Source: a virus. Taken from it: 64,000 nt of DNA. A program made the position numbers and the translations under genes. Position 1 is the stretch's first letter. Each line of letters begins with the position of its first letter. Location: positions 1 through 64,000 of the IMG/VR virus record IMGVR_UViG_3300044971_002301; one strand, given 5' to 3'. Of this stretch, positions 25,054-47,262 are shown in pieces. Below the pieces are notes generated by a model that did not search any database, had not been told where the DNA came from, and saw only the letters and a list, made by a program, of their open reading frames with translations.

Positions 25054-26058
25054 ATGAGTTTAGTAACAATAAATAGTTTGGGAGGAATACCTCCTTATGT
25101 TATTTCAGTTTGTGACATATTTCAATACTCTTGTCAAACTGTGACAACAATATATGATTATATTCCACCATCTGTTAGTTTTAATATTCCGAGTCCATAT
25201 TCATCGGCTCCAAAAGTTTTAATTAAAATAGTCGATTCTACAGGATGTATTTTCACACAAGAATATATGTGTGTAACACCTACTCCAACCCCAAGTATTA
25301 CTCCAAGTGTCACCCCGACAATTTCTTTAACTCCTTCAAATACTCCAACACCAAGTATTACACCATCATTTACACCTACACCGAGTATCACACCAAGTAT
25401 TACACCTACACAAACAGTTACACCATCACATACCCCAACACAAACAATTACTCCAACAGTTACAAGAACTCCAACACCTACAGTTACACCTGACACTCCT
25501 ATTTATGCTTATTTGTTCATTGAACCATACTCAGGTTCTGCTAGTGTTGGTTCTTACATGAATTCACTTGGTTCTAATTTTTATGGATTTACAAATACTA
25601 CTAAACCAAGTAGTTCGGCTAGTACATTTGATTTAGACATGAACAAATATGTTAACTTCTCAGGATGGACAACAGGATTATTTCCAAATATTATAAAACA
25701 ATTAGTACCATCGGCAAGTAGTGGACTTGATTCATACGGTAACCCATATCTTAAATATAATTTCCCAACAACAAAAGTACCTGAAAATACGGTTGGATGT
25801 AAAGCTTGGTACACTTGGATAATACCAATTAGCAGAACCAATAATCAATACCAAGTTGAGATTGATTTGGGAATAGTTAATCCAAATGTCTTTACAAGTG
25901 TAAAGACGGAACCGACAATTTACGCTAATACATTTACTTATACAGGTAGTACTATTGCAAATACAACATACAGGGTTTACACAACATACCCATCAAATAC
26001 ATTTGAATTGGATAATACTTATGACCTTTATTTTAGAGGAAGTAAGGTTGATATATAA
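25054..26058 (+). CDS. TPT-linker adhesin (type A base domain + linker + distal domain)
   Basis: A 334-aa three-part protein. Residues 1-73 are a small Cys-containing base domain ([20 protein letters not shown] ... KIVDSTGC), also encoded alone at 48181 and at 55854 on the minus strand. Residues 74-148 are a Thr/Pro linker of repeated TPTPSITPS/TPTxT units. Residues 150-334 are a distal domain ([20 protein letters not shown] ... [10 protein letters not shown] ... [15 protein letters not shown]) that recurs in the protein at 36271 behind a different base domain. It is followed by a collagen-like fibre gene, the same pair order as at 36271/37510. The linker is mucin-like and would be a good O-glycosylation target. 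Receptor binding is inferred. Confidence 0.7.
25276..25497 (+). repeat. Thr/Pro linker coding repeat (TPTPS-type)
   Basis: In-frame degenerate repeats encoding TPTPSITP-like units within the type A adhesin. Similar linkers occur in the genes at 28065, 36271 and 53375. Confidence 0.85.
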
Positions 26059-26067
26059 TTATAGTAA

Positions 26068-28065
26068 ATGAGTTTCCCATATAAAAATCCAATATCGTCT
26101 ATCCAACTAAATGGAACACAAAGTGTACCAAGAAACAATACGTATGGTACTACTTTCAGTGTTAATAATACGGGTGGTTATATGGAGGTTTTCAGTTTAT
26201 CTGACCTTTATTATACAATACCATCGGGAACAACGGGAAGTATTGAATATTCGGGTAATACTATTCCTATTGAGTTTACAAAAGGAACGGGAACAGCTTG
26301 GTCACCTGATGTAATTACTTTGGCTTCAGATAATATTTCATCAGGTAGAAGACGACTTGGTATGTTGGCTTATGTTTATGAGGTTGACCAAGTTTACCAA
26401 TATCATATTAATGATTACGAGACGTTATTTAATGCTGCGACTGCTAGTACGGGATGCGCTCAAGTATCTGATTTTGGAACAACGATAAATAATAAAACTG
26501 CTGCGGGTCAGTCGTTTATTAATTCTTGGACTGCTAACACTATTGAAGATGTTAGTGGTGCAACATATAGTACTGCGGCATGGAGAAAGTTTTCGACAGG
26601 AACTGGAGGAGGTTCAGGATTTACGTCAGTTAGAATAAATAATGTTAGTCAATTTACGTCATCACCATATAGTTATATTAATTTTAGTGGTGTTAATGTT
26701 GATATATCATCAGTTGGAAACAATACGATTGTATTATCGGCAAGTACTAGCGGAGGTGGTGGAGGAAGTGGTTCGTCAGGTAGTAGTGGTAGTTCAGGAA
26801 CATCGGGAACTAATGGTAGTTCAGGTTCTAGCGGGATTAGTGGTTCTTCAGGTACTAGTGGTAGTTCAGGTTCTGCAGGAACATCGGGGAGTTCGGGTTC
26901 TACAGGTTCGTCAGGAACAAGTGGTAGTAGTGGAACTTCAGGTAGTTCTGGTACATCTGGTTCAAGTGGTAGTAGTGGTTCTTTAGGAACATCAGGAAGT
27001 AGTGGTACCTCAGGTAATGGTGGGTCATCGGGAACAAGTGGTTTAGATGGGATAAGTGGAACGTCAGGTTCTTCAGGGTCAAGTGGAAGTACTGGCTCTT
27101 CAGGAACTAGCGGAACATCAGGTTTAAGTGGTTCTTCAGGAACTTCAGGTAGTTCTGGTACATCAGGTTCATCGGGTAGTTCCGGTTCTGCCGGAACATC
27201 AGGTACAGGATTTACCACAATCACAAGTCCGGGTAGTAATAGAGTATTAACATCTGATGGGACATCTAATGCTGCGGTTGCTCAGGCTAGAATGACTTTT
27301 GATGGTACTACATTATCAGTTACAGGTAATACAAGTGTTAATGGTAATATAAGTACTACAGGTGTAACATCTTTTGGTAACGGAACATTTACAAAGGCGG
27401 GGTCAGCTACTGGTGATGTTCTTCTTGATAATAATAGTACAGATACTCCGGGTGTTTTGTTTTATTATGCTAATAATTCAAACTTTGGTATTGATAGTTT
27501 TAATGGGTCATTTGATGTTCTAAGTGGACAGTTAGTTCGTATCACAAATAATTTAAATGAAGCAGGAGGTGCGGTAAAAATGGCTATAGATACCACAGGT
27601 AATGTGGTATTTACAGGATTTATAAAGGCTAATGCGTGGAGAGCCGGTCAGGTAATTAACGATATTATTTTGAGTAATACTGAGGTAACTGTTAGTACTA
27701 CAACTATAGCTACCAGTAATTCGGATACTGATTTTGTTACTTATAGTTATACACCATTAAGTTCTACAAGTTATTTAGTAATACATTATCATTTAGCATC
27801 TTTTGATTTTACTTCTGGTACAGGTAATGATTCATACATATCTAGAATAAAGGTTGATGGTGGTGAAATAACCTATTCAGTACAAAGCACGGTTAATGGA
27901 TTTCGTACAGGTGTTTTATTTCCATTAACGGGTAGATACACTAACTCTAATACTACCGCAAAATCGATAGTAGTTGCATGTCGTAGAAGTTTTGCGGATG
28001 ATAATATCACAATAGTAAATTCATCTACTTCAATGTGGTTAAGAATAACAGAAGTTGCAAGATAA
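26068..28065 (+). CDS. Collagen-like tail fibre, short stalk
   Basis: A 665-aa fibre. Residues 1-185 are an N-terminal attachment domain (SFPYKNPISSIQLNGTQSVP; DNISSGRRRLGMLAYVYEVD) clearly related to the start of the 2,435-aa protein at 37510. Residues about 235-380 are Gly-x-y triplets, nearly all GSS, GTS, GSA or GST, with one GLDGISGTSG interruption. The part after the stalk (VLTSDGTSNAAVAQARMTFD; GNVVFTGFIKANAWRAGQVI) resembles trimeric fibre shaft sequence. The last 120 residues form a compact beta domain ending MWLRITEVAR, probably the receptor-binding tip. A TAATTAT sequence lies 5 bases before the ATG. The stop overlaps the next start (TAATG). Confidence 0.75.
   Translation: MSFPYKNPISSIQLNGTQSVPRNNTYGTTFSVNNTGGYMEVFSLSDLYYTIPSGTTGSIEYSGNTIPIEFTKGTGTAWSPDVITLASDNISSGRRRLGMLAYVYEVDQVYQYHINDYETLFNAATASTGCAQVSDFGTTINNKTAAGQSFINSWTANTIEDVSGATYSTAAWRKFSTGTGGGSGFTSVRINNVSQFTSSPYSYINFSGVNVDISSVGNNTIVLSASTSGGGGGSGSSGSSGSSGTSGTNGSSGSSGISGSSGTSGSSGSAGTSGSSGSTGSSGTSGSSGTSGSSGTSGSSGSSGSLGTSGSSGTSGNGGSSGTSGLDGISGTSGSSGSSGSTGSSGTSGTSGLSGSSGTSGSSGTSGSSGSSGSAGTSGTGFTTITSPGSNRVLTSDGTSNAAVAQARMTFDGTTLSVTGNTSVNGNISTTGVTSFGNGTFTKAGSATGDVLLDNNSTDTPGVLFYYANNSNFGIDSFNGSFDVLSGQLVRITNNLNEAGGAVKMAIDTTGNVVFTGFIKANAWRAGQVINDIILSNTEVTVSTTTIATSNSDTDFVTYSYTPLSSTSYLVIHYHLASFDFTSGTGNDSYISRIKVDGGEITYSVQSTVNGFRTGVLFPLTGRYTNSNTTAKSIVVACRRSFADDNITIVNSSTSMWLRITEVAR
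26770..27205 (+). repeat. Collagen-like Gly-Ser-Ser/Gly-Thr-Ser coding repeat
   Basis: About 48 in-frame Gly-x-y triplets with mixed Ser codons (TCA, TCT, AGT, AGC). This is the smaller relative of the 6.2-kb repeat at 38130. Confidence 0.9.
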
Positions 28066-29912
28066 TGCCAATCCCACCGAATAAAATAAAATACTCAACG
28101 TCCTTTCATCCTAATACGATTAAAGTTAAGGATTGGGTTTTGGGTATTAATGAAGGTGCGGAATACGGGCCAACAAGTGTTACAGGATTTTGGAATTCTA
28201 TTATACCACCATCAGGTGGTTATACCATGTATGGAAACAAGGCAGTTGCTGGACCATCCATAGTGGTTGCTCAAAACGACTCAGAACTTATTGGTTTTAC
28301 ACAAGGATTTGCGGGACAAACATTTAATACTGCTAACGAAGCGTTAGGATGGTACACAGGACAAACAGGTCTTATTTGTGTTAACCTTGATTACCCTGAT
28401 ATTATAACTGACGGATTAACATTATTACTTGATGCTGGTTATGTTTCATCATACCCAAGAAGTGGTTCACGATGGGATGATTTAAGTTTTAGTGGTAACA
28501 ACGGAACACTAATTAATACTCCAACATTCAATTCAAGTAACAACGGATACCTCACATTTAACGGAAGTAATCAATATGTTAATGTTGCAGGTACTCCTGT
28601 TGGAATAACGGCATATACCAAAAACATTTGGTTTTATCTAAACTCAACGGCTGATAATAATTTATTAAGTAGTGATACTGGTGGACACTTTATGTTCTTT
28701 GCAGGTTCAAATAAATTATATTGTGGACATTCTGATTGGGGTAATTATACGGTTTTCCCATCGGTCACTAACTTTAGTAATGGGGTGTGGTATAATGCGT
28801 GTGTAACTTTTGATACCATAAATGGATTTGTATTGTATGTTAATGGTGTTCAGGATAGTACATACACCACTCAAAAGACACCTATAGGGGGTAATGGTTC
28901 AACAAGGATAGGAGCGTTTGGTGATGGAGGTAATCTATTAAATGGTAGGGTTTCAGTTGCTATGACTTACAATAGAGTATTAAGTTCTACTGAAGTATTA
29001 AAAAATTACAATTCATTTTCGTCAAGATTTATTTCACCATCACCTACTCCGACAACAACAATAACCCCTACACCTACAATGACAGTTACCCCGACGATAA
29101 CTCCAACAAATACTCAAACACCGACAAATACAATTACTCCAACACCTTCCATAACTCCGACTAGAACTGTAACACCTACCCAAACACAGACACCGACAAA
29201 TACGATTACTCCAACACCAACAAGTGTGGGTGGGGTAATTAGTGGTAATTTATTTATGAAGTTAGATGCTACTAATTATGTTAGTGGTACTTGGACTGAT
29301 GAAACGGGAAATGGAAATAATGCAACTATTAATGGTGCCACTTGGTTGTCTACTGACGGAGGTATTTTTGATTTAAATGGGACTAGTAATACAATAAGTA
29401 TACCTCATACTGCTAATCTTAGTTTAAATACTACAACCCAAAGAACAATACAAGTTTGGGTTAAATTTGACGTTTTACCTAGTTCAGGTCAACAAGTTCC
29501 GGTCTTTGGAAAACTATCCAGTTCATTTGGATTTGATGGGTATTGGGGTGGGTTATTCTCGAATGCTGGCGTTGTGAGGGTAGTTACAAATGGAACGGGG
29601 GTTCAAAAAATATCCGACTCTACGTTAACCGTTTCAATTAATACTTGGTATTTATTTACATTTGTTTCACGAATTACCTCAACTGCTAATACCACCAAAG
29701 TGTATATTAATAATACCGAATATATAACAACCGCTCATGGTACTGATACATATAGTGAAACTAACCCTCTTTATTTGGGTTACATTGGTACTGGTATATC
29801 ATCACTTTATTTAAATGGTAAAATAGGTGCCTGTTATTTTTATACCACAGGATTAACCGCCAGTGATGTAACAACAAACTATAATAATACTAAATCAAAA
29901 TATGGATTATAA
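28065..29912 (+). CDS. Adhesin with two LamG-like lectin domains
   Basis: I use the ATG at 28065, which overlaps the previous stop (TAATG); an earlier start would overlap the fibre gene by 31 bases. The 615-aa product has an N-terminal attachment part (residues 1-110; IPPSGGYTMYGNKAVAGPSI; TANEALGWYTGQTG). It is followed by a LamG/concanavalin A-like jelly roll (GLTLLLDAGYVSSYPRSGSR, YLTFNGSNQYVNV, VLYVNGVQDSTYTT), a TPT linker near residues 325-387, and a second LamG-like domain (KLDATNYVSGTWTDETGNGN, FDLNGTSNTISIPHTANLSL, KVYINNTEY). LamG folds usually bind glycans or proteins, so a host-surface binding role is likely. The two lectin domains are diverged, not a recent copy. Confidence 0.75.
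   Translation: MPIPPNKIKYSTSFHPNTIKVKDWVLGINEGAEYGPTSVTGFWNSIIPPSGGYTMYGNKAVAGPSIVVAQNDSELIGFTQGFAGQTFNTANEALGWYTGQTGLICVNLDYPDIITDGLTLLLDAGYVSSYPRSGSRWDDLSFSGNNGTLINTPTFNSSNNGYLTFNGSNQYVNVAGTPVGITAYTKNIWFYLNSTADNNLLSSDTGGHFMFFAGSNKLYCGHSDWGNYTVFPSVTNFSNGVWYNACVTFDTINGFVLYVNGVQDSTYTTQKTPIGGNGSTRIGAFGDGGNLLNGRVSVAMTYNRVLSSTEVLKNYNSFSSRFISPSPTPTTTITPTPTMTVTPTITPTNTQTPTNTITPTPSITPTRTVTPTQTQTPTNTITPTPTSVGGVISGNLFMKLDATNYVSGTWTDETGNGNNATINGATWLSTDGGIFDLNGTSNTISIPHTANLSLNTTTQRTIQVWVKFDVLPSSGQQVPVFGKLSSSFGFDGYWGGLFSNAGVVRVVTNGTGVQKISDSTLTVSINTWYLFTFVSRITSTANTTKVYINNTEYITTAHGTDTYSETNPLYLGYIGTGISSLYLNGKIGACYFYTTGLTASDVTTNYNNTKSKYGL
29037..29225 (+). repeat. Thr/Pro linker coding repeat between LamG-like domains
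   Basis: In-frame repeats encoding [15 protein letters not shown]-like units that join two lectin-like domains. Confidence 0.85.
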
Positions 29913-30851: not shown

Positions 30852-32096
30852 ATGAAAATTTTTATACAAGTTGCCTCTTACAGAGACCCCCAACTAATCC
30901 CAACTATACAGTCAGCATTGGAAAATGCTAAACGACCTGAAAACTTAGTTTTTGGTATTGCTCGTCAGTTTCATCCTGATGATAATTTTGATAATTTAGA
31001 TGAATATAGGAATGATGAAAGATTTAGAATAATCGATATTCCATACACCGAATCCAAAGGAGCTTGTTGGGCAAGAAATCAAATACAACAAGTATATGGT
31101 AAGGAAACTTACACTCTTCAAATTGACTCACACATGAGGTTTGCTCAAAATTGGGATGATGAGATGATTAAGATGGTTAAACAACTTCAAAAGAAAGGAT
31201 ATAAGAAACCTTTATTAACAGGTTATGTTTCATCCTTTGACCCTGACAATGACCCCAACCTACGTGTTAACGAACCATGGAGAATGGCGTTTGATAGATT
31301 TATTCCTGAAGGTGCGGTTTTCTTTTTACCTGAAACAATTCCTGGTTGGCAAAATTTAACTGAACCTGTTACCGCAAGATTTTACTCGGCTCACTTCTGT
31401 TTTACTCTTGGAAAATTTGCTAAAGAAGTTCAACACGACCCTGAGTTTTATTTTCATGGTGAAGAGATTTCAATCGCTGCAAGAGCATACACTCATGGAT
31501 ATGATTTATTCCACCCACATAAAGTTTTAATTTGGCATGAATATACTCGTAAGGGTAGAACTAAACAATGGGATGACGATAAACAATGGGTTGATAAGAA
31601 TAATTTTGCTCATAAGAAAAATCGTTCTCTATTCGGTATGGATGGTGAGGAAGATATGAATCACGGGAAGTATGGGTTTGGTAAAGTTAGAACTTTAAGA
31701 GATTATGAAAAATATTCAGGTCTTTTATTTTCAAAGAGAGCCGTTCAACAATATACGTTAGATAAAGGTTATCCACCAAATCCAAATAACTTCAATTCAG
31801 AAGAAGAATGGTTAAAGTCATTTACATCGGTATTCAAACATTGTATTGATATTGGGTTTACTCAAGTACCTGAAAAGGATTATGACTTTTGGGTTGTTGC
31901 GTTCCATAATGAATTAGATGAAACCATTTACAGACAAGATGCTGATAAAGGTGAGGTTGATAGAATGTTAAGAGACCCTGATGGTTATTGTAAAGTTTGG
32001 AGAGAGTTCTTAACTGATTCAAAACCTAAATATTGGGTTGTTTGGCCTCACTCGGAATCTAAAGGATGGTGTGATAGAATAACAGGAAATTTATAA
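30852..32096 (+). CDS. GlcNAc-transferase-like glycosyltransferase
   Basis: A 414-aa GT-A-type enzyme resembling the Skp1-type (hydroxyproline) N-acetylglucosaminyltransferase family. It opens MKIFIQVASYRDPQLIPTIQ, has KGACWARNQIQQVYGKETYT, and the metal/nucleotide-sugar motif D92-S-H94 (LQIDSHMRF), as that family does. ARFYSAHFCF and DPEFYFHGEEISIAARAYTH would form the acceptor side. It acts in the cytoplasm; there is no signal or membrane segment. It is the first of five glycosyltransferase genes. The target may be phage fibres or host glycans; the family's known acceptors are protein side chains, which favours a protein target (inference). Confidence 0.8.
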   Translation: MKIFIQVASYRDPQLIPTIQSALENAKRPENLVFGIARQFHPDDNFDNLDEYRNDERFRIIDIPYTESKGACWARNQIQQVYGKETYTLQIDSHMRFAQNWDDEMIKMVKQLQKKGYKKPLLTGYVSSFDPDNDPNLRVNEPWRMAFDRFIPEGAVFFLPETIPGWQNLTEPVTARFYSAHFCFTLGKFAKEVQHDPEFYFHGEEISIAARAYTHGYDLFHPHKVLIWHEYTRKGRTKQWDDDKQWVDKNNFAHKKNRSLFGMDGEEDMNHGKYGFGKVRTLRDYEKYSGLLFSKRAVQQYTLDKGYPPNPNNFNSEEEWLKSFTSVFKHCIDIGFTQVPEKDYDFWVVAFHNELDETIYRQDADKGEVDRMLRDPDGYCKVWREFLTDSKPKYWVVWPHSESKGWCDRITGNL

Positions 32097-32099
32097 GAT

Positions 32100-32810
32100 A
32101 TGAAATTTACATTTGCTACTTTTTGTTTTGGTGAAAGATATTATAACCAAGTTAATAGATTTATTGGTGATATCGTAGAATCGGATTATAAAACAAATTT
32201 GGTTGTTATTACCGATGACCCAAGTAAGATTAATAATCAAGAATTTGTTCACACTTTCAACATTAATGATTTTAATCCAAATTATTTGGAGTATGCTAAA
32301 AACTACTATGATTTTGATTTTTCAGTTAAGAGATATTCGTTAAGAGCTGCTTTAAGTATTGGTTTTACTAAAATGATTTTAGTTGATTGTGATATGAGAG
32401 TTAACCCATCTTTCTTTAATGAAGAAAAGATTTTAGGAGCGTTTGATGAGAATTGTTTATCAGGGCCAGTAACATATAATTTTAACGAACAAGTTCATAC
32501 CAATAGTGAATTAGGTAGACGATTACTTGAGTATGAAAAGTATTTCAATCATGAGGTTAATAAAGATAAGTTGGAGGTTATGCCTGAAGATTGTATCCAA
32601 TACTTGAGTATTGATGAAGATAAGTTTAATAGTTTTTTAGATACTTGGGACAAGTGTATCGAATATAAAAAAGAAAAAGGTTTGAGAAACATACCCGCAG
32701 GTAACATAGACGAGATGTGTTTCTCGGCGTTATCTAATGGAATTGAAATAAAAAATAACGCTTATAAAGCATCAAATATAATATACGCAGAACATGACAA
32801 ATGGTACTAA
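32100..32810 (+). CDS. Putative GT-A-fold glycosyltransferase
   Basis: A 236-aa protein starting 3 bases after the previous gene. It has a typical GT-A beginning (FTFATFCFGERYYNQVNRFI; NLVVITDDPSKI) and a DxD motif, D96-C-D98, in FTKMILVDCDMRVNPSFF. An IPAGNIDEMCFSALSNGIEI segment later resembles the acceptor-site helix of GT-A enzymes. I cannot assign a CAZy family. It overlaps the next gene by 17 bases. Confidence 0.65.
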   Translation: MKFTFATFCFGERYYNQVNRFIGDIVESDYKTNLVVITDDPSKINNQEFVHTFNINDFNPNYLEYAKNYYDFDFSVKRYSLRAALSIGFTKMILVDCDMRVNPSFFNEEKILGAFDENCLSGPVTYNFNEQVHTNSELGRRLLEYEKYFNHEVNKDKLEVMPEDCIQYLSIDEDKFNSFLDTWDKCIEYKKEKGLRNIPAGNIDEMCFSALSNGIEIKNNAYKASNIIYAEHDKWY

Positions 32811-33648
32811 AATAATTTCAGCAATTTATGAATTAAAATATGTTGAAGGGATTAATAGTGAAAGATATAAAAATTTTCCATTATTGGTTGCAACGATTAA
32901 AAACATAATTTATCCTGAATATCGTTACGTAATTTATACTGACCAAAATTCATATGATAAGTTTAATTTAAAGTATGAATTTAATTTCCCAAATGTTGAA
33001 TTTAAATTTAAAGAATTAAATACATCTGAAACTTGTGAATTAATTGACAGAATTAGAACTCAAGAATTATCAGGTGGAATTAACTATGATAGAATTTATT
33101 GTGTAAACAATTATTTGGAAGTTGTTTTAAATAAACTTCAATTCTTAATTGATGAGTCACATGATTGTGATAATATCTTTTGGATTGATGCTGGTTTGAT
33201 TGGAACATCTTGTCATGACGGGTGGAGAGATTATATGGCTCCGTTAATTAACTCAAAAAACTTTTTGGATAAGGTGGTTGATAAGATAAATCAACATGGA
33301 TTTATCCATTTAAAAGGTAATTCAATTGTCATGAATTATGAAACGGTTGCTAAGTTTAACGACCTATTTGGTGTTGAATTAAAGGTTGTTCCTGGATGTC
33401 TATTTGGTGGAACATCAGAAAAAGTTAGACATATTTTAGACGGATATTTAGACATTTTTAATCAATACTTAACCACACATAACCAACTTATTAGTGAACA
33501 AGAGGTTCTTACGGCTATTACAGGTAAACATTCGGATGAATGTCACGCTTTTGAATTTGGTGATTGGTTAGACTTACAAAAAGCGTTTTTAGACATTTTA
33601 GACATTTATGATGAGACAAAATATGTAAGGGAGAAGTGTTATGTTTAG
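32794..33648 (+). CDS. HtrL/YibB-like putative glycosyltransferase
   Basis: A 284-aa protein with the WIDAGL box (residues 130-135) in DNIFWIDAGLIGTSCHDGW, preceded by YRYVIYTDQ and followed by VVPGCLFGGTSEKV. This arrangement is that of the HtrL/YibB family, GT-A-like proteins in surface polysaccharide loci. It overlaps the preceding gene by 17 bases and the next by 8. The same WIDAGL domain forms the first half of the protein at 34201, so the block contains two relatives. Activity and substrate are unknown. Confidence 0.6.
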   Translation: MTNGTKIISAIYELKYVEGINSERYKNFPLLVATIKNIIYPEYRYVIYTDQNSYDKFNLKYEFNFPNVEFKFKELNTSETCELIDRIRTQELSGGINYDRIYCVNNYLEVVLNKLQFLIDESHDCDNIFWIDAGLIGTSCHDGWRDYMAPLINSKNFLDKVVDKINQHGFIHLKGNSIVMNYETVAKFNDLFGVELKVVPGCLFGGTSEKVRHILDGYLDIFNQYLTTHNQLISEQEVLTAITGKHSDECHAFEFGDWLDLQKAFLDILDIYDETKYVREKCYV

Positions 33649-34204
33649 TCTTAACATTGTTTGTACTTCAATTGGGAGAGAAACTCTACCAAGATTAATT
33701 GAGTCATTCAAAGACCAATTAGACCCAACAGATATTTTTACAATAATCTCAGATATTAATCACGACTTTGTTTCAGAAGTATTATCAAGATATGAGTTTA
33801 AATTCAAAGTTAATCACATATTAAATCAAGGGGAACAAAAATGGAAATACGGACATCCGTTAATTAATGAAAACATTAATTCATTAGAAGGTGATTTTAT
33901 AATGTTTGCCGATGATGATGATAGATACACTGAAGACGCATTTAAAGTAATCAAAGAAACTATTAAAGATAAAAACAAATTATACATATTCAAACACAAT
34001 TGGTTAGGTGATATTAATTGGAGATTAAAAGATTTCACAAGAGGTAATGTAGGGAAATGTATGGGAGTGATTCCAAACACACATAATTTACCGATGTTCC
34101 AAGAAGATGTTTTTGGGGATGTTATTTTTTATGAAGAGATAGGTCAAATGTTTGAAAGTGAATTTGTTGATTACATAATCTATAAAGTTAGACATACGGA
34201 ATGA
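33641..34204 (+). CDS. Short family 2-like glycosyltransferase
   Basis: A 187-aa GT-A domain: FSLNIVCTSIGRETLPRLIE (nucleotide-binding start), DIFTIISDINHDFVSEVL, then GDFIMFADDDDRYTEDAFKV with the acidic metal motif D91-D94. It resembles the catalytic half of family 2 enzymes and is shorter than most (usually 230 aa or more), ending soon after FQEDVFGDVIFYEEIGQMF. It overlaps both neighbours by a few bases, so the whole block is probably translated as a coupled series. Confidence 0.7.
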   Translation: MFSLNIVCTSIGRETLPRLIESFKDQLDPTDIFTIISDINHDFVSEVLSRYEFKFKVNHILNQGEQKWKYGHPLINENINSLEGDFIMFADDDDRYTEDAFKVIKETIKDKNKLYIFKHNWLGDINWRLKDFTRGNVGKCMGVIPNTHNLPMFQEDVFGDVIFYEEIGQMFESEFVDYIIYKVRHTE

Positions 34205-35871
34205 GTAATATTACATTAGTTACAGGATTGTGGAATATTGGAAGAGAAAATCTTGAAGAAGGTTGGTCTCGTTCTTTTTCACATTATTTAGAAAAATTTG
34301 AACAACTATTAAAAGTTGAAGAAAACTTAATAATTTTTGGTGAAAAGGAATTGGAGGAATTTGTTTGGGAAAGAAGAGACCAAAGTAATACCCAATTTAT
34401 TTTAAGAGATAAGAGTTGGTTTGTTGAAAATGACTTTTACAATAAAATACAAGAAATTAGAAATAATCCTGAATGGTATAATCAATCAGGGTGGTTAAAA
34501 GAATCAACACAAGGTAGATTGGAAATATACAATCCACTTGTTATGTCAAAAATGTTTATATTAAATGATGCAAGGATTTTTGATAAGTTTAATTCAGAGT
34601 TTTTATTTTGGATTGACGCTGGACTTACAAATACTGTTCACCCCGGATATTTCACACATGATAAGGTGTTAGATAATTTAAGTAAGTATATAGATAAGTT
34701 TACATTTGTTTGTTTTCCATACGATGCAAGTAATGAGATACACGGATTTTCATATCCAAAGATTAATCAGTGGGCTGAAGATGATGTAAAAAAAGTTGCT
34801 CGTGGTGGATTTTTTGGAGGTCCTAAAGAAACCATATCACAGATGAATGGTGAATACTATAACCTATTGAATGATACACTATCAAGTGGGTACATGGGAA
34901 CGGAAGAGTCAATATTTTCAATAATGGTTTATAAGTTAAGTGAATACATAAATTATTTTGAAATTGAATATAATGGTTTATTTGGGAAATTCTTTGAGGA
35001 TTTAAAAGATGATGTTTTAGTTAAAAAGACAGAGTTTGTTAAAATTCAAAATGATTTAGATATAGATAAAGTTGCGTTGTATGTAATAACATTCAATTCA
35101 CCAAAACAATTTGAAACATTAATTAAATCTATGATTGAATATGATAGGGATTTCTTGGAAAAACCAAAGAAATTTTTATTGGATAACTCTACAGATTTAT
35201 CAACAACTGAAGAATACTTAAAACTTTGTAAAGAATATGACTTTGAACATATTAAAAAAGATAACATAGGTATTACAGGTGGAAGACAATGGACTGCGGA
35301 ACACTTTGATGAAACGGGGTTGGACTATATGTTATTCTTTGAGGATGATATGTTTTTTTACTCACAAAAAAATGAAGTGTGTAGAAATGGGTTTAACAGA
35401 TATGTAAGTAATCTATATCAAAAAAGTTTAGAGATAGTTAACAAAGAAAACTTTGATTTTTTAAAATTAAATTTTTCAGAGTTTTATGGTGATAATAGTA
35501 CTCAGTGGAGTTGGTATAATGTTCCACAAAATTTCAGAGAACAACATTGGCCAAAAAATCCAAGATTACCTCAACAGGGTTTAGACCCAAATGCTCCAAA
35601 AACAAAATTCAACGAGATTAAAACACATAAAGGTTTACCATACGCTTCAGGTGAAATTTATTTGTGTAACTGGCCAATAATCCTTTCAAAAAGTGGGAGT
35701 TATAAATGTTATTTGGAAACAAAATATCAACACCCATATGAACAAACTTTAATGTCTCATAACTTCCAAAACACAATTAAAGGTAAATTAAAACCAGGTA
35801 TTTTATTACTCACTCCTACCGAACATGATAGATTTGAACATTATGATAGTAATTTAAGAAAAGAATGTTGA
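34201..35871 (+). CDS. Two-domain glycosyltransferase (HtrL-like + GT-A)
   Basis: A 556-aa fusion. The N-terminal half carries WIDAGLTNTVHPGYF (W137, D139) and RGGFFGGPKETISQMNGEYY, related to the HtrL/YibB-like protein at 32794. The C-terminal half begins near residue 285 with VALYVITFNSPKQFETLIKS and has YMLFFEDDMFF (E381-D382-D383), the acidic motif of a family 2-like GT-A domain. LPYASGEIYLCNWPIILSKS is a likely acceptor-site segment. Two active centres in one chain suggest that it adds two sugars in sequence, or the same sugar repeatedly; this is inference. It ends the glycosyltransferase block. Confidence 0.65.
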   Translation: MSNITLVTGLWNIGRENLEEGWSRSFSHYLEKFEQLLKVEENLIIFGEKELEEFVWERRDQSNTQFILRDKSWFVENDFYNKIQEIRNNPEWYNQSGWLKESTQGRLEIYNPLVMSKMFILNDARIFDKFNSEFLFWIDAGLTNTVHPGYFTHDKVLDNLSKYIDKFTFVCFPYDASNEIHGFSYPKINQWAEDDVKKVARGGFFGGPKETISQMNGEYYNLLNDTLSSGYMGTEESIFSIMVYKLSEYINYFEIEYNGLFGKFFEDLKDDVLVKKTEFVKIQNDLDIDKVALYVITFNSPKQFETLIKSMIEYDRDFLEKPKKFLLDNSTDLSTTEEYLKLCKEYDFEHIKKDNIGITGGRQWTAEHFDETGLDYMLFFEDDMFFYSQKNEVCRNGFNRYVSNLYQKSLEIVNKENFDFLKLNFSEFYGDNSTQWSWYNVPQNFREQHWPKNPRLPQQGLDPNAPKTKFNEIKTHKGLPYASGEIYLCNWPIILSKSGSYKCYLETKYQHPYEQTLMSHNFQNTIKGKLKPGILLLTPTEHDRFEHYDSNLRKEC

Positions 35872-35900: not shown

Positions 35901-36269
35901 ATGGAATTTTTTATTAACAAAGGTGCAACACTGCCTGTTCTTAAAATGCAAGTGGTTAAAGATGGTATTGCTGACATAACAGAGTTTATGTCATTAATAG
36001 AAAACTCGTTGATTTATTTTTCCATGATAGATGTTAAAACGGGAGGTTACAAGATTCTGAATAAGAAAGGAGGGTTTGTTGAAAAGACATTTATTGACCC
36101 AAACGCTGAGACAGAGTACTATGTTTATTATAAATTCACTTCAAGCGATACAAGTAGAGAGGGACTTTATGAAGGAGAGTTTGTTTTTATCACTGATACA
36201 GGAACTTATATTTTACCAATCAGAGAAAAACTTACGATAAAAATTGGTAATAGTTACGTATCTATTTAA
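35901..36269 (+). CDS. Stand-alone type B base domain
   Basis: A 122-aa beta-rich protein (MEFFINKGATLPVLKMQVVK; YYVYYKFTSSDTSREGLYEG). It is clearly related to the first 130 residues of the next gene (MEWFIKKNSTLPVFQVEISK; YYVNYQFTSRETKNEGKFLV). The fold looks immunoglobulin-like, as in the N-terminal domains of some phage receptor-binding or fibre-adaptor proteins (BppU-type), but this is a visual impression. It starts 29 bases after the glycosyltransferases and 1 base separates it from the next gene. Likely an adaptor subunit or the remnant of a duplicated base domain. Confidence 0.6.
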   Translation: MEFFINKGATLPVLKMQVVKDGIADITEFMSLIENSLIYFSMIDVKTGGYKILNKKGGFVEKTFIDPNAETEYYVYYKFTSSDTSREGLYEGEFVFITDTGTYILPIREKLTIKIGNSYVSI

Positions 36270-36270
36270 T

Positions 36271-37479
36271 ATGGAATGGTTTATTAAGAAAAATTCAACG
36301 TTACCAGTTTTCCAAGTTGAGATATCAAAAGACGGAAGAAGTGATTTTGGTTTAGATGAAAATATTTCGGGTAATACAATTTTAATTTCGGTATATGATG
36401 AAGTTAATAAGAAATATATTGTAGCGTCTAAAGAATGTTATATTACAACAAGTGCGTCTACTGTTAATCCTTTAGATATTACTTATTATGTAAACTATCA
36501 ATTTACAAGTAGAGAAACTAAAAATGAGGGTAAGTTTTTAGTTCAGTTTTTAAAACAATCATCTCAGGGTATTGTTATTATACCATTACCTCAAAAAATT
36601 TATGTAAGTGTTCTTAGTAGTTTTAGTTTAAACTCTTACTCTTATCCGACTAATAATCCTTACATTATTGATAGACCATGTTGTAACGCACCAGCTCTAC
36701 CTGCAACACCTACACCAACACCATCTATTACTCCAAGTGTTACTCCAACAATGTCTTTAACACCATCACTAACTCCAACTCTCACACCTACAACAACTAC
36801 AACACCTACATTTACTCCTACACCATCTATTACAACACCACAATATTATGCTTATGTATTCGCAGAACCACAAGATTCTTCGGCAAGTGGTTCGTTGTAT
36901 GGATTAGGAAGTTATATGTATTACTTATCGGATGGTATAACACCTGATACTAATGTTAATTGGTACGGATGGGGTAACTCGGGAGCTCTTCCATTACCAA
37001 CAAATCCAAACTACAGTTATATGATGAACAAATACTCATCATACTCAGGATTTACAGGTGGAACAGGAAACTTTGTTAAACCTACAGACTTAAAAGGTGC
37101 GTTAAATCAATTCCCAAATACTATCAATGATAGTTTTGGATGTTTAATTAACCAATACACTTTTGAAACAATAGAAGTTAATAATAGTGATATTAACACT
37201 AGTTTACAGTACATGTATACGATTTGGATACCACTTGATGGTGTCGGAGGAACTTTAAATAATATGAGTGTAAATGTTGGTTATCAATCACAACCTTGTG
37301 ACTTTGATATTTTAGCAACTCCTGACCCTAAAATTTCGGTTGGGGATATTACAATAACTCCAGGTGGAGCGATACCTGCGGGAACTTATAGAGTATTATA
37401 CTTATCAAACGATGGATTGTTACCTCCAAAACTTCCTGATAATAACAATTATTATTTCAAAGGGGTGTATAAAACCTAA
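36271..37479 (+). CDS. TPT-linker adhesin (type B base domain + linker + distal domain)
   Basis: The ATG at 36271 immediately follows the previous stop and gives 402 aa; the shared MEWFIKK/MEFFINK start with the preceding protein supports it. Residues 1-145 form the type B base domain. Residues 146-190 form a TPT linker ([20 protein letters not shown]). Residues 192-402 are a distal domain (YAYVFAEPQDSSASGSLYGL; MMNKYSSYSGF; GGAIPAGTYRVLYLSNDG) related to the distal domain of the protein at 25054. The same distal module has thus been joined to two different base domains. It precedes the giant collagen-like gene, repeating the order at 25054/26068. Confidence 0.7.
   Translation: MEWFIKKNSTLPVFQVEISKDGRSDFGLDENISGNTILISVYDEVNKKYIVASKECYITTSASTVNPLDITYYVNYQFTSRETKNEGKFLVQFLKQSSQGIVIIPLPQKIYVSVLSSFSLNSYSYPTNNPYIIDRPCCNAPALPATPTPTPSITPSVTPTMSLTPSLTPTLTPTTTTTPTFTPTPSITTPQYYAYVFAEPQDSSASGSLYGLGSYMYYLSDGITPDTNVNWYGWGNSGALPLPTNPNYSYMMNKYSSYSGFTGGTGNFVKPTDLKGALNQFPNTINDSFGCLINQYTFETIEVNNSDINTSLQYMYTIWIPLDGVGGTLNNMSVNVGYQSQPCDFDILATPDPKISVGDITITPGGAIPAGTYRVLYLSNDGLLPPKLPDNNNYYFKGVYKT
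36702..36840 (+). repeat. Thr/Pro linker coding repeat
   Basis: In-frame TPTPS-type repeats within the type B adhesin, similar in amino-acid pattern to those at 25276, 29037 and 55130. Confidence 0.85.
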
Positions 37480-37509
37480 AAAAAAGATAATTATTAGTAA
37501 GTAAAAAAA

Positions 37510-40500
37510 ATGGCAATACCGTATCAAAATCCAATAAGTGCGTCCCAAATTACAGGACCTTTCAGTGTAGCGAGAACAAGTCCATACGGAACCAATTTTA
37601 ATGTTTTAAATGTTGGTGGATGGCAAGAGGCGGCATACCTTACTAATTTAGGTTTAACATTTAGTGGGCAAGGACAACAACAATTAAGTGTTAATAATAT
37701 ACCTATTAATATTAACATTGGTAACGGTACATTTTCTCCAACATATTTAACTTTAAATTCTGACAATTTCTCTTCGGGTAGAAGAAGATTGGGTATGATT
37801 GTTTGGGTTAATGAAACTGAAACGGCATATCAATATCAAATAGACAATTACAATGATTTATGGGATGCTGCAGTAAGTGCTAATTCTGTAACTCAATTAT
37901 CTTACGAAACTATTATAAAGAATAATACACCTGAAGGTCAGGCATTTATTAATGCTTGGACAGGCTCAACTATTGAAGGTGTTAGTGGTGTTACAAGAGA
38001 AAATGCGAGATGGAGAGTTTTTGCTCAAGGTACTGAATTAACGGGTGGTACTTATTTTTCAGGTACAAGTACATTAGAATTATATAATAGTGATGGAACT
38101 ATTATTTCTGTAACAGGTATTACGGCATCTGGTTCTAATGGTAGTTCTGGAACATCAGGTTCTGCGGGTACAAGTGGTTCTTCAGGAAGTGCTGGTTCTT
38201 CAGGTAACTCTGGTTCTTCAGGTTCAGCAGGTACAAGTGGAACTTCAGGTAGTTCTGGTTCATCAGGTAGTTCTGGTTCTGCGGGTACATCAGGAACAAG
38301 TGGAACGTCTGGTTCATCAGGGGATAGCGGTTCTTCGGGAAGTGCTGGAACTAGCGGTAGTTCAGGTAGTGCTGGAACATCAGGTATTAATGGTGTTGAT
38401 GGTGCAAGTGGAACATCAGGTACAAGTGGTTCATCAGGACTATCAGGTACTGGAGGTTCTTCGGGTACATCAGGAACATCTGGCTCCTCAGGTTCATCAG
38501 GTTCTTCAGGAAGTGTGGGAACAAGTGGAACGTCAGGTTCTTCGGGAAGTTCTGGTACAAGCGGAACTTCAGGAACTTCAGGTTCAAGTGGTTCATCGGG
38601 AAGTTCAGGTTCAAGTGGTTCATCGGGTACATCAGGTAGTACTGGTACTAGTGGTAGTAGTGGAACAAGCGGAACGTCGGGTTCATCAGGTTCTGCGGGA
38701 AGTAGTGGTTTATCAGGTAGTGTTGGAACATCTGGCTCAAGTGGTAGTTCAGGTAGTTCTGGTTCATCAGGTACATCTGGCTCAAGTGGTAGCTCTGGTT
38801 CAACAGGTTCGTCAGGTAGTAGTGGTATAACTGGGTCTTCAGGTACGAGTGGTAGTTCTGGCACATCAGGTTCATCTGGTAGTTCAGGTTCTTCAGGTTC
38901 ATCTGGTAGTTCAGGTTCTTCAGGTAGTACTGGTTCATCAGGAACTAGCGGAACATCAGGAACATCAGGTACAAGTGGTAGTTCAGGTTCTACAGGAACA
39001 TCGGGTTCTACAGGAACATCGGGTTCATCAGGTAGTAGTGGCTCAAGTGGAAGTTCAGGATTGACAGGTTCATCAGGAACATCGGGTTCATCAGGGACAT
39101 CGGGTTCATCAGGTAGTTCTGGTTCAAGTGGTAGTAGCGGAAGTACAGGGTCTTCGGGCACAAGTGGTAGTTCTGGTACATCAGGTTCATCAGGAAGTTC
39201 AGGTTCATCAGGTTCTAGCGGTAGTGTTGGAACTTCGGGAACAAGTGGTTCAAGTGGAAGTTCAGGTTCTTCAGGAAGTGTAGGAACATCAGGTACAAGT
39301 GGAAGTTCAGGTTCGTCTGGCTCAAGTGGAAATACAGGTTCAAGTGGAACGAGTGGTTCATCAGGTACATCTGGCTCAAGTGGTAGTTCAGGTTCGTCTG
39401 GCTCAAGTGGTTCAAGTGGAAGTTCAGGTTCATCTGGAAGTGTAGGAACATCAGGTACAAGTGGTAGTTCAGGTTCTTCAGGTAGTTCAGGTGTTAATGG
39501 TTCTTCAGGGACTAGTGGTAGTTCGGGAACATCTGGTTCTTCAGGAAGTTCGGGTTCATCAGGTTCTAGTGGTAGTTCAGGAACATCTGGCTCAAGCGGG
39601 TCTTCTGGTTCAAGTGGAAGTACTGGTTCTTCAGGAAGTGCAGGTACATCGGGTAGTGTAGGAACTAGCGGTAGTTCTGGTTCATCTGGTTCTTCAGGTA
39701 GTACTGGCTCAAGTGGTACTTCAGGTTCTTCGGGAAGTTCTGGTACTAGTGGTTCATCAGGTAGTGTAGGTACTAGTGGTTCATCAGGTAGTTCTGGTTC
39801 AAGTGGTAGTAGCGGAAGTACAGGGTCTTCTGGTACAAGTGGGAGCTCAGGAACATCTGGTACAAGCGGTAGTTCTGGGTCATCTGGTTCAGTTGGTACA
39901 AGCGGTTCATCAGGTAGTGTTGGAACATCTGGTTCATCAGGTTCTGTTGGTACTTCAGGAACATCGGGTTCATCAGGTAGTACTGGTTCAAGTGGAAGTT
40001 CAGGAAGTAGTGGTAGTGTAGGAACAAGTGGTTCTTCAGGGACATCTGGCTCAACAGGTACTTCAGGAACATCAGGTTCAAGTGGGTCTTCAGGTAGTTC
40101 GGGTTCATCAGGAAGTTCAGGTACAAGCGGAACATCAGGTTCAGTAGGAACAAGTGGTTCATCGGGAAGTTCAGGGTCAACAGGAACTTCAGGTTCAAGT
40201 GGGTCTTCAGGTAGTTCAGGAAGTAGCGGAACATCTGGTTCTAGTGGAAGTGTTGGAACTTCTGGTACATCAGGAACAAGTGGTTCATCGGGAAGTTCTG
40301 GTTCTGCCGGTACAAGTGGAAGTGTAGGAACAAGTGGTACTTCAGGTTCATCTGGCTCAAGTGGAAGTTCAGGTTCAACAGGTAGTTCAGGTACTAGCGG
40401 TTCATCTGGAAGTTCTGGTTCTGCAGGTACAAGTGGAAGTTCTGGTTCTTCAGGTAGTACGGGTTCAAGAGGAACTAGCGGAACATCAGGAAGTTCTGGT

Positions 40501-43500
40501 TCTGTTGGAACTAGTGGAACGTCTGGTTCAGTAGGAACTAGCGGAACATCTGGAACAAGTGGTTCATCAGGTTCTAGCGGTAGCGCTGGAAGCTCAGGAA
40601 CGTCAGGTTCTAGCGGTAGCACAGGTTCAAGTGGTTCTACTGGCACGTCAGGTTCTTCAGGAACAAGTGGTTCTGTAGGTACAAGCGGAACATCTGGTTC
40701 CTCAGGAAGTGTAGGTACTTCAGGTACTAGTGGAAGCTCAGGAAGTGTAGGAACATCTGGTTCAAGTGGTACTACTGGTACCTCAGGAACATCAGGTAGT
40801 TCAGGTTCTAGCGGAAGTTCAGGTTCAAGTGGAACTAGTGGTAGTTCAGGAAGTTCTGGTTCATCGGGTAGTAGCGGTAGTTCTGGTAGTGTAGGAACAT
40901 CTGGTTCTTCAGGAAGTTCTGGTTCAAGTGGTTCATCCGGAAGTTCAGGTTCTACAGGTTCAAGAGGAACATCGGGTACTTCAGGAACTAGCGGTTCAAG
41001 TGGAAGTACAGGAACTAGTGGTACATCAGGTTCAACGGGGACTTCAGGAACAAGTGGTTCAACTGGAACATCAGGTACAAGTGGAAGTACAGGGTCTTCA
41101 GGAAGCTCTGGTACGTCGGGTAGTGTAGGTACTAGCGGTAGTTCAGGCTCTAGCGGAAGTACAGGAACTAGTGGAACCTCTGGTTCAACAGGGACTAGCG
41201 GTTCATCAGGTAGTTCAGGTTCAAGTGGAAGTTCAGGTAGTAGTGGTAGCGTTGGAACTTCTGGTACATCAGGTTCAAGTGGTTCTTCAGGAAGTGCAGG
41301 TTCTAGTGGAAGTACTGGAACCTCAGGAACATCAGGTAGTTCTGGTTCTTCAGGTAGTTCAGGTTCAAGTGGTAGTGTTGGAACATCAGGTTCATCGGGT
41401 AGTGTAGGTACTAGCGGTTCTTCTGGTTCAAGTGGAAGTTCAGGTTCTAGCGGAAGTACAGGGTCAAGCGGAACTAGTGGTAATTCAGGTTCGTCTGGTT
41501 CAAGTGGAAGTTCAGGTTCATCTGGAAGTGTAGGAACAAGTGGAACCTCAGGTTCAGTAGGTACAAGTGGTACATCAGGAAGTTCAGGCTCAAGTGGTAG
41601 TACGGGTTCATCTGGTACTAGCGGCTCTTCGGGAAGTACTGGGTCATCTGGAAGTTCAGGTTCAACAGGAACTAGCGGTTCTTCAGGAACATCAGGTAGT
41701 AGCGGTTCTAGTGGTAGTGCTGGAACAAGTGGTAGTTCTGGTTCTGTTGGTACATCTGGGTCAAGCGGAAGTAGTGGTTCATCGGGAAGTGTAGGCACAT
41801 CCGGTTCTTCAGGCTCTAGCGGTAGTGCTGGAAGTTCAGGAAGTGTTGGTACATCAGGGACTAGTGGTAGTTCAGGTTCTTCTGGTTCAAGTGGTAGTGT
41901 TGGTACATCAGGTACTAGCGGTTCATCAGGTACTAGCGGTTCATCAGGGTCAAGCGGAACTAGCGGTAGTTCAGGTTCTAGCGGTTCTTCAGGAAGTTCT
42001 GGGTCATCTGGCTCTTCAGGTAGTACAGGTTCAAGAGGAACTAGCGGTACTTCAGGAACTAGTGGTAGTGTAGGTACATCCGGTTCTTCAGGTAGTTCGG
42101 GAACATCAGGAAGTAGTGGAAGTTCAGGTTCTGCAGGTACAAGTGGAAGTGTAGGAACATCTGGAACTTCTGGTTCAAGTGGGTCATCAGGTTCAAGTGG
42201 TAGTGTTGGAACTAGCGGTTCATCAGGAACAAGTGGTTCGTCAGGTTCTAGCGGTAGTGCTGGAAGCTCAGGAAGTACTGGTTCATCAGGTTCTGCGGGA
42301 AGTGCTGGTACATCAGGGGTTAATGGTTCTTCAGGAACATCAGGTTCTGCTGGCTCAAGTGGAAGTTCAGGTTCTTCAGGTAGTTCGGGTTCAGTAGGTA
42401 CAAGCGGAACTTCAGGTTCATCAGGTAGTGCTGGCTCGTCAGGGTCTAGCGGTTCTGTTGGTACTTCAGGTAGTAGTGGAACATCTGGAAGCTCTGGCTC
42501 AAGTGGTAGTGCGGGTTCATCAGGGAGTAGTGGAACTTCAGGTTCATCAGGAAGTTCAGGTTCAAGTGGTAGTACGGGGTCTTCAGGAAGTTCTGGTTCA
42601 ACAGGTTCTAGAGGAACTAGCGGAACATCAGGTTCATCTGGAAGTGTTGGTACTTCAGGAACGTCAGGTTCAGTAGGTTCGTCTGGTTCTTCAGGAACTT
42701 CAGGTTCAGTAGGTACTAGTGGAACATCTGGAAGCTCTGGCTCAAGTGGTAGTGCGGGGTCATCAGGGAGTACTGGTACAAGTGGAAGTTCGGGTTCAAC
42801 TGGTACTTCAGGTTCAAGTGGAAGTAGTGGCTCATCAGGTTCTTCAGGGAGTACTGGTACAAGTGGAACATCAGGTTCTAGTGGAAGTAGTGGTAGTTCA
42901 GGGTCATCTGGTTCTGCAGGTACATCAGGAAGTAGTGGAAGTTCAGGGTCTAGCGGTAGTTCTGGTTCATCAGGTACATCGGGAACTAGCGGAAGTTCAG
43001 GAACTTCAGGTAGTAGTGGGTCATCAGGTTCAACGGGTAGTTCAGGAAGTAGTGGAACAAGTGGTTCATCTGGTACTTCAGGTTCATCTGGCTCAAGTGG
43101 TAGTACGGGTTCTTCAGGAAGCTCAGGCTCAAGCGGAAGTTCTGGTTCAACAGGTTCTAGAGGAACAAGTGGAACTTCTGGTTCGTCAGGAACTAGCGGA
43201 ACGTCAGGAACATCAGGCTCAAGCGGAAGTGTTGGAACATCTGGTTCGTCAGGAAGTACAGGAACATCAGGTAGTGCTGGTTCTTCTGGCTCAAGTGGTA
43301 GTTCAGGTTCAAGTGGAAGTACTGGAACATCAGGTTCATCAGGTTCTAGCGGTAGTACTGGAAGCTCAGGAACGTCAGGTTCTGTAGGTACAAGCGGGAC
43401 ATCAGGAACTTCGGGAAGTACTGGTTCTAGTGGTAGTTCAGGAAGTTCTGGTTCATCGGGTAGTACAGGTACTTCAGGAAGCTCAGGTTCAAGTGGAACT

Positions 43501-46367: not shown

Positions 46368-46379
46368 TTTGTATGTAAT

Positions 46380-47252: not shown

Positions 47253-47262
47253 AAATTTAATT

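What the first reader, a model, noticed from the sequence alone, without database searches (positions are those of the whole stretch)
30852..35871. Five-gene glycosyltransferase block inserted between the two fibre cassettes
Five consecutive, overlapping or nearly touching GT-A-type genes (one resembling hydroxyproline/protein GlcNAc transferases, one a double-domain enzyme) lie exactly between the two cassettes. Around them are thousands of Ser/Thr residues in TPT linkers and Gly-Ser/Thr-Ser stalks. A phage-encoded system that glycosylates its own fibres, for stiffness, protease resistance or immune and receptor masking, would explain both the location and the composition. Host surface modification is the alternative.
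Basis: partly seen in the sequence, partly recalled or inferred. Interest (0 to 1): 0.85.

Follow-up and report, generated by a model that had tools for sequence, protein, structure and literature searches.

The report
Swappable sugar-coating genes for phage fibres
A large phage carries, between its fibre genes, a set of sugar-attaching enzymes whose first and last members are kept while the middle ones are swapped between related phages, which probably lets each phage dress its own Thr/Ser-Pro-rich fibres with a different sugar coat.

Summary
Four of five are supported as glycosyltransferases by profiles or a predicted fold; the second has only a conserved DxD motif. New result: gene 1 (PF11397) and gene 5 (two GT-A-like domains) are fixed bookends of an exchangeable island. 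Of 82 gene-1 loci, 70 have a full gene 5 downstream; these blocks hold 66 interior gene families in 29 arrangements (other transferases, methyltransferases, UDP-galactopyranose mutase, carbamoyltransferase). One of 396 block proteins passes a membrane-span threshold. The recurring neighbour is not the Gly-Ser/Thr stalk (12 of 82 loci) but a protein with Thr/Ser-Pro repeats (69 of 82). The same gene pair sits beside a repeat protein with a Tat-like leader in two bacterial chromosomes, and a few kb from a repeat-bearing protein in Xanthomonas phage XacN1 and Stenotrophomonas phage RAS14. The XacN1 authors report at least two glycoproteins, but also no visible tail fibres. Best reading: cytoplasmic O-glycosylation of the phage's own repeat-bearing virion proteins, gene 1 initiating and the interior setting a variable outer glycan. 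Acceptor, sugars and effect are inferred. Phage-encoded virion glycosylation is known, so this is a new variant of a known kind.

The parts
30852..32096 (+). GT1, PF11397-type glycosyltransferase, first bookend; proposed initiating protein O-glycosyltransferase
   Evidence: PF11397 232 bits, phrog_24687 E 5.4e-170; D92-S93-H94 invariant in 20 of 20 aligned
32100..32810 (+). GT2, interior gene, probable glycosyltransferase without a family
   Evidence: No Pfam, PHROGs or NCBIfam match; D96 and D98 invariant in 9 of 9
32794..33648 (+). GT3, interior gene, HtrL_YibB-like glycosyltransferase
   Evidence: No Pfam match; hhalign to GT5 N-terminal half, probability 89.5, E 2e-6, and to interior cluster 2, probability 98.0
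33641..34204 (+). GT4, interior gene, small GT2-family (SpsA-like) transferase
   Evidence: PF00535 24.8 bits over cut-off 23.3; profile matches SpsA chain 1h7l, E 9e-4
34201..35871 (+). GT5, two-domain glycosyltransferase, last bookend
   Evidence: PF09612 in the first half; model pLDDT 77.7, N-domain like GT6 enzymes, C-domain like B4GALNT1
35901..36269 (+). Small gene that follows GT5; homologues follow GT5 in many other blocks
   Evidence: Gene orders; no family
25054..26058 (+). Thr/Ser-Pro repeat fibre protein, proposed acceptor
   Evidence: Run of [ST]P; 29% identical to 36244 product over 251 positions
28035..29912 (+). Laminin-G-like fibre protein with a Thr-Pro linker, proposed acceptor
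   Evidence: PF13385 E 9.4e-26; Thr/Ser-Pro run
36244..37479 (+). Thr/Ser-Pro repeat fibre protein of the second cassette, proposed acceptor
   Evidence: Thr/Ser-Pro run
53375..55849 (-). Thr/Ser-Pro repeat protein with beta-propeller repeats, proposed acceptor
   Evidence: 61 [ST]P dipeptides; TIGR02276; homologues are neighbours of GT1 in L525, L528, L529 and L530
26068..28065 (+). Gly-X-Y stalk protein of the first cassette, alternative acceptor
   Evidence: 153 residues in Gly-X-Y triplets
37510..44817 (+). Long Gly-X-Y (Gly-Ser/Thr) stalk protein of the second cassette, alternative acceptor
   Evidence: 2,100 of 2,435 residues in Gly-X-Y triplets; N-terminus 45% identical to 26068 product

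Best explanation
The block is a phage-encoded protein O-glycosylation island that modifies the phage's own virion proteins. GT1 (PF11397 family) attaches the first sugar to Thr/Ser in Thr/Ser-Pro repeat linkers of fibres, in the infected cell's cytoplasm and from nucleotide sugars. The interior enzymes extend and cap the glycan, and the two-domain GT5 adds further residues. GT1 and GT5 are retained while the interior is exchanged between phages, so related phages would carry similar fibre linkers with different outer glycans. Shown: gene content, bookend architecture, interior diversity, near-absence of predicted membrane spans, recurrent neighbourhood with Thr/Ser-Pro repeat proteins. Inferred: acceptor, order of action, sugars, and the purpose (extended protease-resistant linkers and surface variation).
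For: 70 of 82 GT1 loci have a full GT5 downstream, with 66 interior clusters in 29 arrangements whose families are sugar transfer and decoration. One of 396 block proteins passes a simple hydrophobicity threshold. Thr/Ser-Pro runs in 69 of 82 GT1 loci; with one locus per arrangement, 33 of 127 flanking genes against 4 of 187 other genes carry one. GT1 and GT5 beside a repeat protein with a Tat-like leader in Jiulongibacter sediminis and a Saprospiraceae MAG. Repeat-bearing C-terminus of a long protein a few kb from the block in XacN1 and RAS14. GT1 without GT5 next to, or one gene from, a repeat protein in four loci of a divergent phage group. XacN1 authors report at least two glycoproteins by proteomics (passage of PMC5852040). 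Records drawn by the repeat pattern carry GT1 in 12 of 42, by the reversed pattern in 1 of 35.
Against: No glycan was observed here. 13 of 82 GT1 loci have no run in the held stretch, and 6 of 14 further loci have none. Repeats occur without GT1: 30 of 42 repeat-drawn records lack it, and among 27 records with a shared structural marker, 6 of the 7 without GT1 still have the repeat pattern. At 60 kb or more the enrichment is not significant (9 of 21 against 1 of 9, p 0.20). The arrangements share ancestry, so the flank statistics are not independent. The XacN1 authors saw no tail fibres and found no fibre homologues (passage), so there the acceptor would be another virion protein, and the glycoproteins are not identified in the passages seen. 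In two Proteobacteria GT1 homologues sit in type VI secretion clusters without such repeats nearby in L197 and L200. In 13 of the 15 cellular loci the pair is not beside a repeat protein.
Confidence: 0.65

Rival explanations
1. The block remodels the host's surface polysaccharide during infection to keep other phages from adsorbing, as Iyer and colleagues propose for cyanophage glycosyltransferase clusters.
For: The interior resembles O-antigen or capsule loci: GT25, GT10, GT11, UDP-galactopyranose mutase, methyltransferases, and interiors are polymorphic. A paper proposes surface-polysaccharide diversification for cyanophage clusters (passage of PMC7824862).
Against: One of 396 block proteins has a predicted membrane span, so no obvious flippase, lipid-linked initiator or ligase. 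Enriched beside Thr/Ser-Pro repeat proteins, also in chromosomes. Soluble transferases could still feed a host pathway, so it is not excluded.
Confidence: 0.17
2. The acceptor is the Gly-X-Y (Gly-Ser/Thr) stalk: GT1 and GT5 glycosylate Thr/Ser in the collagen-like triplets and thereby stiffen a proline-free stalk.
For: The block lies between the two stalk genes; 2,100 of 2,435 residues are Gly-X-Y with 208 Thr at X and 58 at Y. GT5's best whole-length Foldseek matches include the collagen-modifying enzyme LH3; interiors include GT25 and GT_PLOD matches.
Against: Stalks found in 12 of 82 GT1 loci, 11 of them near-identical relatives of the window by GT1. LH3 similarity reflects two GT-A domains and other two-domain enzymes match as well.
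Confidence: 0.1
3. The enzymes glycosylate modified bases of the phage's DNA.
For: GT5's C-terminal half has weak matches to TAGT (E 0.031) and to phrog_842, an HMC glucosyltransferase family (E 5.1e-5). Thymidylate-synthase-family genes occur in 14 of 21 records, mostly one per record.
Against: TAGT match is 14.6 bits against a cut-off of 27.5. 7 of 21 records have no thymidylate-synthase-family gene, though records may be fragments. TET/JBP in 0 of 21, but the control was silent too. The pair also occurs in bacterial chromosomes beside a repeat protein.
Confidence: 0.04
4. GT1 acts on hydroxyproline, as the eukaryotic Skp1 enzymes of its Pfam family do (recalled), after a prolyl hydroxylase modifies the repeats.
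For: GT1 belongs to PF11397 and the repeats are proline-rich; 6 of 18 records encode a PF13640 oxygenase.
Against: 12 of 18 records, among them this one (a possible fragment) and XacN1 and RAS14, have none; PF03171 absent here. A host enzyme is not excluded.
Confidence: 0.04

Closest known systems
Virion glycosylation of mycobacteriophages (Freeman et al. 2023; paper not held; known here through a passage of PMC12619734)
   Same: Phage-encoded glycosyltransferases are held to decorate virion proteins
   Different: There capsid and tail-tube C-termini; here the proposed acceptors are Thr/Ser-Pro repeat proteins, with fixed bookends and an exchangeable interior
Xanthomonas phage XacN1 glycosyltransferases and glycoproteins (PMC5852040, passages)
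   Same: Its ORF334 is a GT1 homologue and ORF330 a GT5 homologue; the authors propose phage enzymes for its glycoproteins
   Different: They name ORF328 and ORF334 only; in the passages seen the block, its bookends and the repeats are not described; no tail fibres were seen there
Cyanophage polysaccharide gene clusters (PMC7824862, passage)
   Same: Phage-borne glycosyltransferase clusters, polymorphic between relatives
   Different: Proposed there to alter the host's outer polysaccharide; here fixed bookends, almost no predicted membrane spans, and repeat-protein neighbours
Chlorella virus PBCV-1 capsid glycosylation (named in PMC5852040; details recalled)
   Same: Virus encodes its own cytoplasmic machinery to glycosylate a structural protein
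   Different: A eukaryotic virus with another acceptor; no sequence comparison was made here

Membership tests
PF11397 GlcNAc-transferase (GT1) | Profile score above Pfam's cut-off | tested here: met
   232.4 bits against 21
PF11397 GlcNAc-transferase (GT1) | GlcNAc transfer to hydroxyproline (recalled for the Skp1 enzymes), hence a prolyl hydroxylase | tested here: inconclusive
   PF13640 in 6 of 18 records, none in this one, which may be a fragment
HtrL_YibB (GT5, first half) | Pfam profile above cut-off | tested here: met
   PF09612 49.7 bits against 24.1
YibB equivalog (GT5) | NCBIfam equivalog cut-off | tested here: not met
   TIGR02192 60.6 bits against 264.9
Phage-encoded virion glycosylation | Glycosyltransferase genes carried by the phage next to virion genes | tested here: met
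   Block between paralogous fibre cassettes
Phage-encoded virion glycosylation | Glycans on virion proteins that depend on these genes | not testable with these tools
   Only the XacN1 report of at least two glycoproteins
GtrABC-type host seroconversion | Membrane flippase and membrane-anchored transferase (recalled) | tested here: not met
   1 of 396 block proteins has a 19-residue window over 1.6 in hydropathy
DNA base glycosyltransferases (TAGT / HMC-GT) | Profile above cut-off and a base hydroxylase in the genome | tested here: inconclusive
   TAGT 14.6 bits against 27.5; TET/JBP 0 of 21 with a silent control; thymidylate-synthase family 14 of 21

The most novel reading that the evidence does not exclude
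A mucin-like virion: a portable O-glycosylation cassette for Thr/Ser-Pro repeat proteins, used by phages for their fibres and by some Bacteroidota for an exported surface protein. Its fixed first and last enzymes and exchangeable interior would give phages a serotype-like variety of fibre sugars, shuffled much as capsule loci are.
Probability: 0.4. Interest if true: 0.8.

Novelty: new variant of a known kind. Interest (0 to 1): 0.62.

Why it matters
If right, a broad group of jumbo phages varies the sugar coat of its fibres by gene exchange, a layer of virion identity that sequence-based host-range prediction ignores. It gives a marker pair (GT1 plus GT5) and a candidate acceptor repeat, so protein O-glycosylation in phages becomes testable by mass spectrometry. 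The same pair in bacterial chromosomes suggests a shared cytoplasmic O-glycosylation system for proline-rich surface proteins.

Tried and rejected
Hydroxyproline route as a general rule: PF13640 in 6 of 18 records, PF03171 in 0 of 1. Gly-Ser/Thr stalks as the common partner: 12 of 82 loci. A near-identity DNA search of the block region in named phages found nothing; a protein search with GT1 found 3 of 50,697 records. Solved-structure searches by sequence with GT1 and GT5, single and as profiles, gave no relatives (one search listed one chance-level match at E 0.91). The GT1 model was poor (pLDDT 54.1) and was not used. A control on 27 records sharing a structural marker did not separate repeats from GT1. 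Sampling Bacteroidota genomes found GT1 only in the centre genome, 1 of 395, and in 2 of 398 of the family of the Saprospiraceae MAG (one is the centre, the other agrees in contig number and length with locus L190), so GT1 is rare in cells and the chromosomal association rests on two genomes. A BLAST comparison of the two whole stalk proteins found only a chance match; their N-terminal 200 residues alone are clearly related. Paper searches with phage, virion, glycosylation, tail fiber, tail tube, jumbo phage, threonine-proline, phage-encoded glycosyltransferase and PF11397 terms: in the listings seen I found no paper on this bookended island; one search matched 5,091 papers of which 12 were listed, and the library holds open-licence papers only. 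Of papers, only found passages were seen (PMC5852040, PMC7824862, PMC12619734); Freeman 2023 is not held.

Rows dropped before counts: of the 80 loci listed, the 42 on distinct contigs of 30 kb or more were given; of the rows listed, the 35 of 30 kb or more, with L326 left out because it is in both sets and L481 because it repeats a contig. The split at 60 kb was counted by hand from the listings. In one search one locus per arrangement was used (29). The best 80 of 400 GT1 relatives and of 566 GT5 relatives were kept by the tool. The GT1 and GT5 sets share contigs.
Full report
What is there. Five same-strand ORFs lie at 30852-35871 with one 3-base gap and three short overlaps. GT1 is a strong PF11397 member; GT4 is GT family 2; GT5 has HtrL_YibB in its first half. 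GT3 is related to that first half of GT5 and to interior cluster 2 of other blocks. GT2 matches nothing in Pfam, PHROGs or NCBIfam and rests on an invariant D-x-D. The GT5 model (pLDDT 77.7, pTM 0.59) shows two GT-A-like domains: the first most like GT6 enzymes (Z about 13, 191-198 residues, rmsd 3.1-3.5), the second most like B4GALNT1 (Z 14, 195-203 residues, rmsd 3.5-4.3); LARGE1, LH3 and Mimivirus R699 match across both at large rmsd. Domain orientation is uncertain at that pTM. Acidic motifs are invariant in the aligned relatives, consistent with active enzymes. The block lies between two paralogous fibre cassettes.

The island architecture. A scan of viral contigs with GT1 found 400 relatives, of which the best 80 were kept; with two named phages this makes 82 loci. 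In 70 of 82 a full GT5 homologue lies downstream within 10 kb. Of the other 12, eight have only partial GT5 matches in the held stretch and four (L038, L042, L043, L044) have none. In 69 of the 70 blocks no opposite-strand ORF was called between the bookends; L006 has one of 61 codons. Clustering the 70 blocks gives one GT1 cluster, one GT5 cluster and 66 interior clusters in 29 arrangements. The 66 representatives match, at E 0.01 or better, families of transfer and decoration: FkbM methyltransferases (6), GT25 (4), GT10 (3), GT2 (3), GT11, UDP-galactopyranose mutase, carbamoyltransferase, nucleotidyl transferase, GT_PLOD, RXYLT1_C and others; 25 of 51 matched families were shown. Only 1 of 396 proteins passes a simple hydrophobicity threshold for a membrane span, which speaks against flippase- or ligase-dependent polysaccharide systems. 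The window's own interior gene GT3 gave only 21 loci where GT1 gave 400 and GT5 566; the search patterns differ, so this is only in keeping with an exchangeable interior.

What it sits beside. I defined a Thr/Ser-Pro run (40 residues, at least 28 S/T/P and 7 [ST]P). Runs occur within the held stretch in 69 of 82 GT1 loci and 63 of 80 GT5 loci. In 67 of 82 GT1 loci a run lies within two genes upstream of GT1 or three downstream of GT5. With one locus per arrangement, 25 of 29 have a run in that flank, and 33 of 127 flanking genes carry one against 4 of 187 other genes (odds ratio 16). The arrangements share ancestry, so the p-value there (9e-11) overstates independence. By contrast the Gly-Ser/Thr stalk is present in 12 of 82 loci. 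The stalk itself is collagen-like in periodicity: 2,100 of 2,435 residues in Gly-X-Y triplets, Thr mostly at X (208 at X, 58 at Y).

Independent contexts. XacN1 and RAS14 carry the same bookends (GT1 47% and 45%, GT5 43% and 41%); a few kb from the block each encodes a protein of over 3,100 residues with C-terminal Thr/Ser-Pro repeats. The XacN1 repeat falls below my run criterion; the RAS14 one passes it. [quoted passage not shown] the supplementary figure was not seen, the proteins are not named in the passages, and the same paper saw no tail fibres and found no fibre homologues. In a divergent phage group GT1 (about 40% identity), with no GT5 in the 20 kb held, lies next to or one gene from a repeat protein in L525, L528, L529 and L530. 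Of the 14 extra loci fetched, 8 have a run and 6 (L524, L526, L527, L531, L532, L537) do not; these were mostly chosen from records already known to carry the pattern. Among 15 loci from bacterial and archaeal genomes, six (L188 to L193) have an ORF of over 500 codons matching GT5 next to or near GT1. In two of them, Jiulongibacter sediminis (1.3-Mb contig) and a Saprospiraceae MAG (neighbours include uvrB and an Omp85 protein), the pair is directly beside a repeat protein with an RR-hydrophobic leader that looks like a Tat signal (recalled motif). The Jiulongibacter locus also has a carbamoyltransferase between GT1 and GT5, and a UDP-sugar dehydrogenase and an epimerase nearby. A Tat-type leader would fit modification in the cytoplasm before export; that is inference.

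Controls. Viral contigs drawn only by an ACNCC repeat pattern: 12 of 42 records of 30 kb or more carry GT1; drawn by the reversed pattern: 1 of 35, a partial match. Fisher p 0.004; with full-length matches only, 11 of 42 against 0 of 35, p 0.0007; restricted to 60 kb or more, 9 of 21 against 1 of 9, p 0.20, or full-length 8 of 21 against 0 of 9, p 0.07. Length and lineage differ between the sets. Within the window's wider lineage repeats are nearly universal: of 27 records with a shared marker, the pattern is in 19 of 20 with GT1 and in 6 of 7 without, so repeats do not depend on GT1.

Mechanism. GT1 beside a repeat protein without GT5 suggests GT1 as the initiating protein transferase; the constant GT1 with a changing interior suggests a constant core and variable outer glycan; GT5 may add a conserved element. 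None of this was assayed. Rivals are host-surface modification, the Gly-X-Y stalk as acceptor, DNA glycosylation and hydroxyproline glycosylation, with the tests given above.

Novelty. Phage-encoded virion glycosylation is known for mycobacteriophages (through PMC12619734) and was proposed for XacN1. PMC12619734 also reports four glycosyltransferase groups among the core groups of the aquatic moraphages, predicted to infect mostly Bacteroidota; they may be related to this phage, but I had no sequences to test it. What I did not find in the listings of the searched library is the bookended exchangeable island, its tie to Thr/Ser-Pro repeats, and the chromosomal version.

Noticed in passing
L003:9986-17672 and on into L004 (record positions about 72986-82826, outside the window): A second sugar cluster: GT1-group transferase with FkbM methyltransferase, DegT aminotransferase, hexapeptide transferase, MaoC-like and GT2 genes. 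In L070 homologues of two of its genes lie just upstream of the repeat protein and GT1.
   Followed up: partly
L197:9989-11353 and L200:9971-11383: GT1 homologues (45-48% identical) sit in type VI secretion clusters of a Neisseriaceae bacterium and Paraburkholderia, right after a fimbrial-adhesin-like gene; role unknown. Other Burkholderiales loci (L198, L199, L201) were not tested by profile.
   Followed up: partly
37510-44817: A 2,435-residue protein with 2,100 residues in proline-poor Gly-X-Y triplets of Ser and Thr; NCBIfam matches collagen-like adhesins, perhaps by composition.
   Followed up: partly
25054-28065 and 36244-44817: The two fibre cassettes are paralogous, so the block sits between duplicated modules.
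   Followed up: yes
L188:6349-8424: A sulfotransferase-domain gene lies beside the repeat protein of the Saprospiraceae GT1/GT5 locus, possibly another glycan modification.
   Followed up: no
45465-48171: Three Gly-rich paralogues (29-31% Gly); homologues lie directly upstream of GT1 in L033, L036 and L059, loci without Thr/Ser-Pro runs, so they might be alternative acceptors.
   Followed up: no
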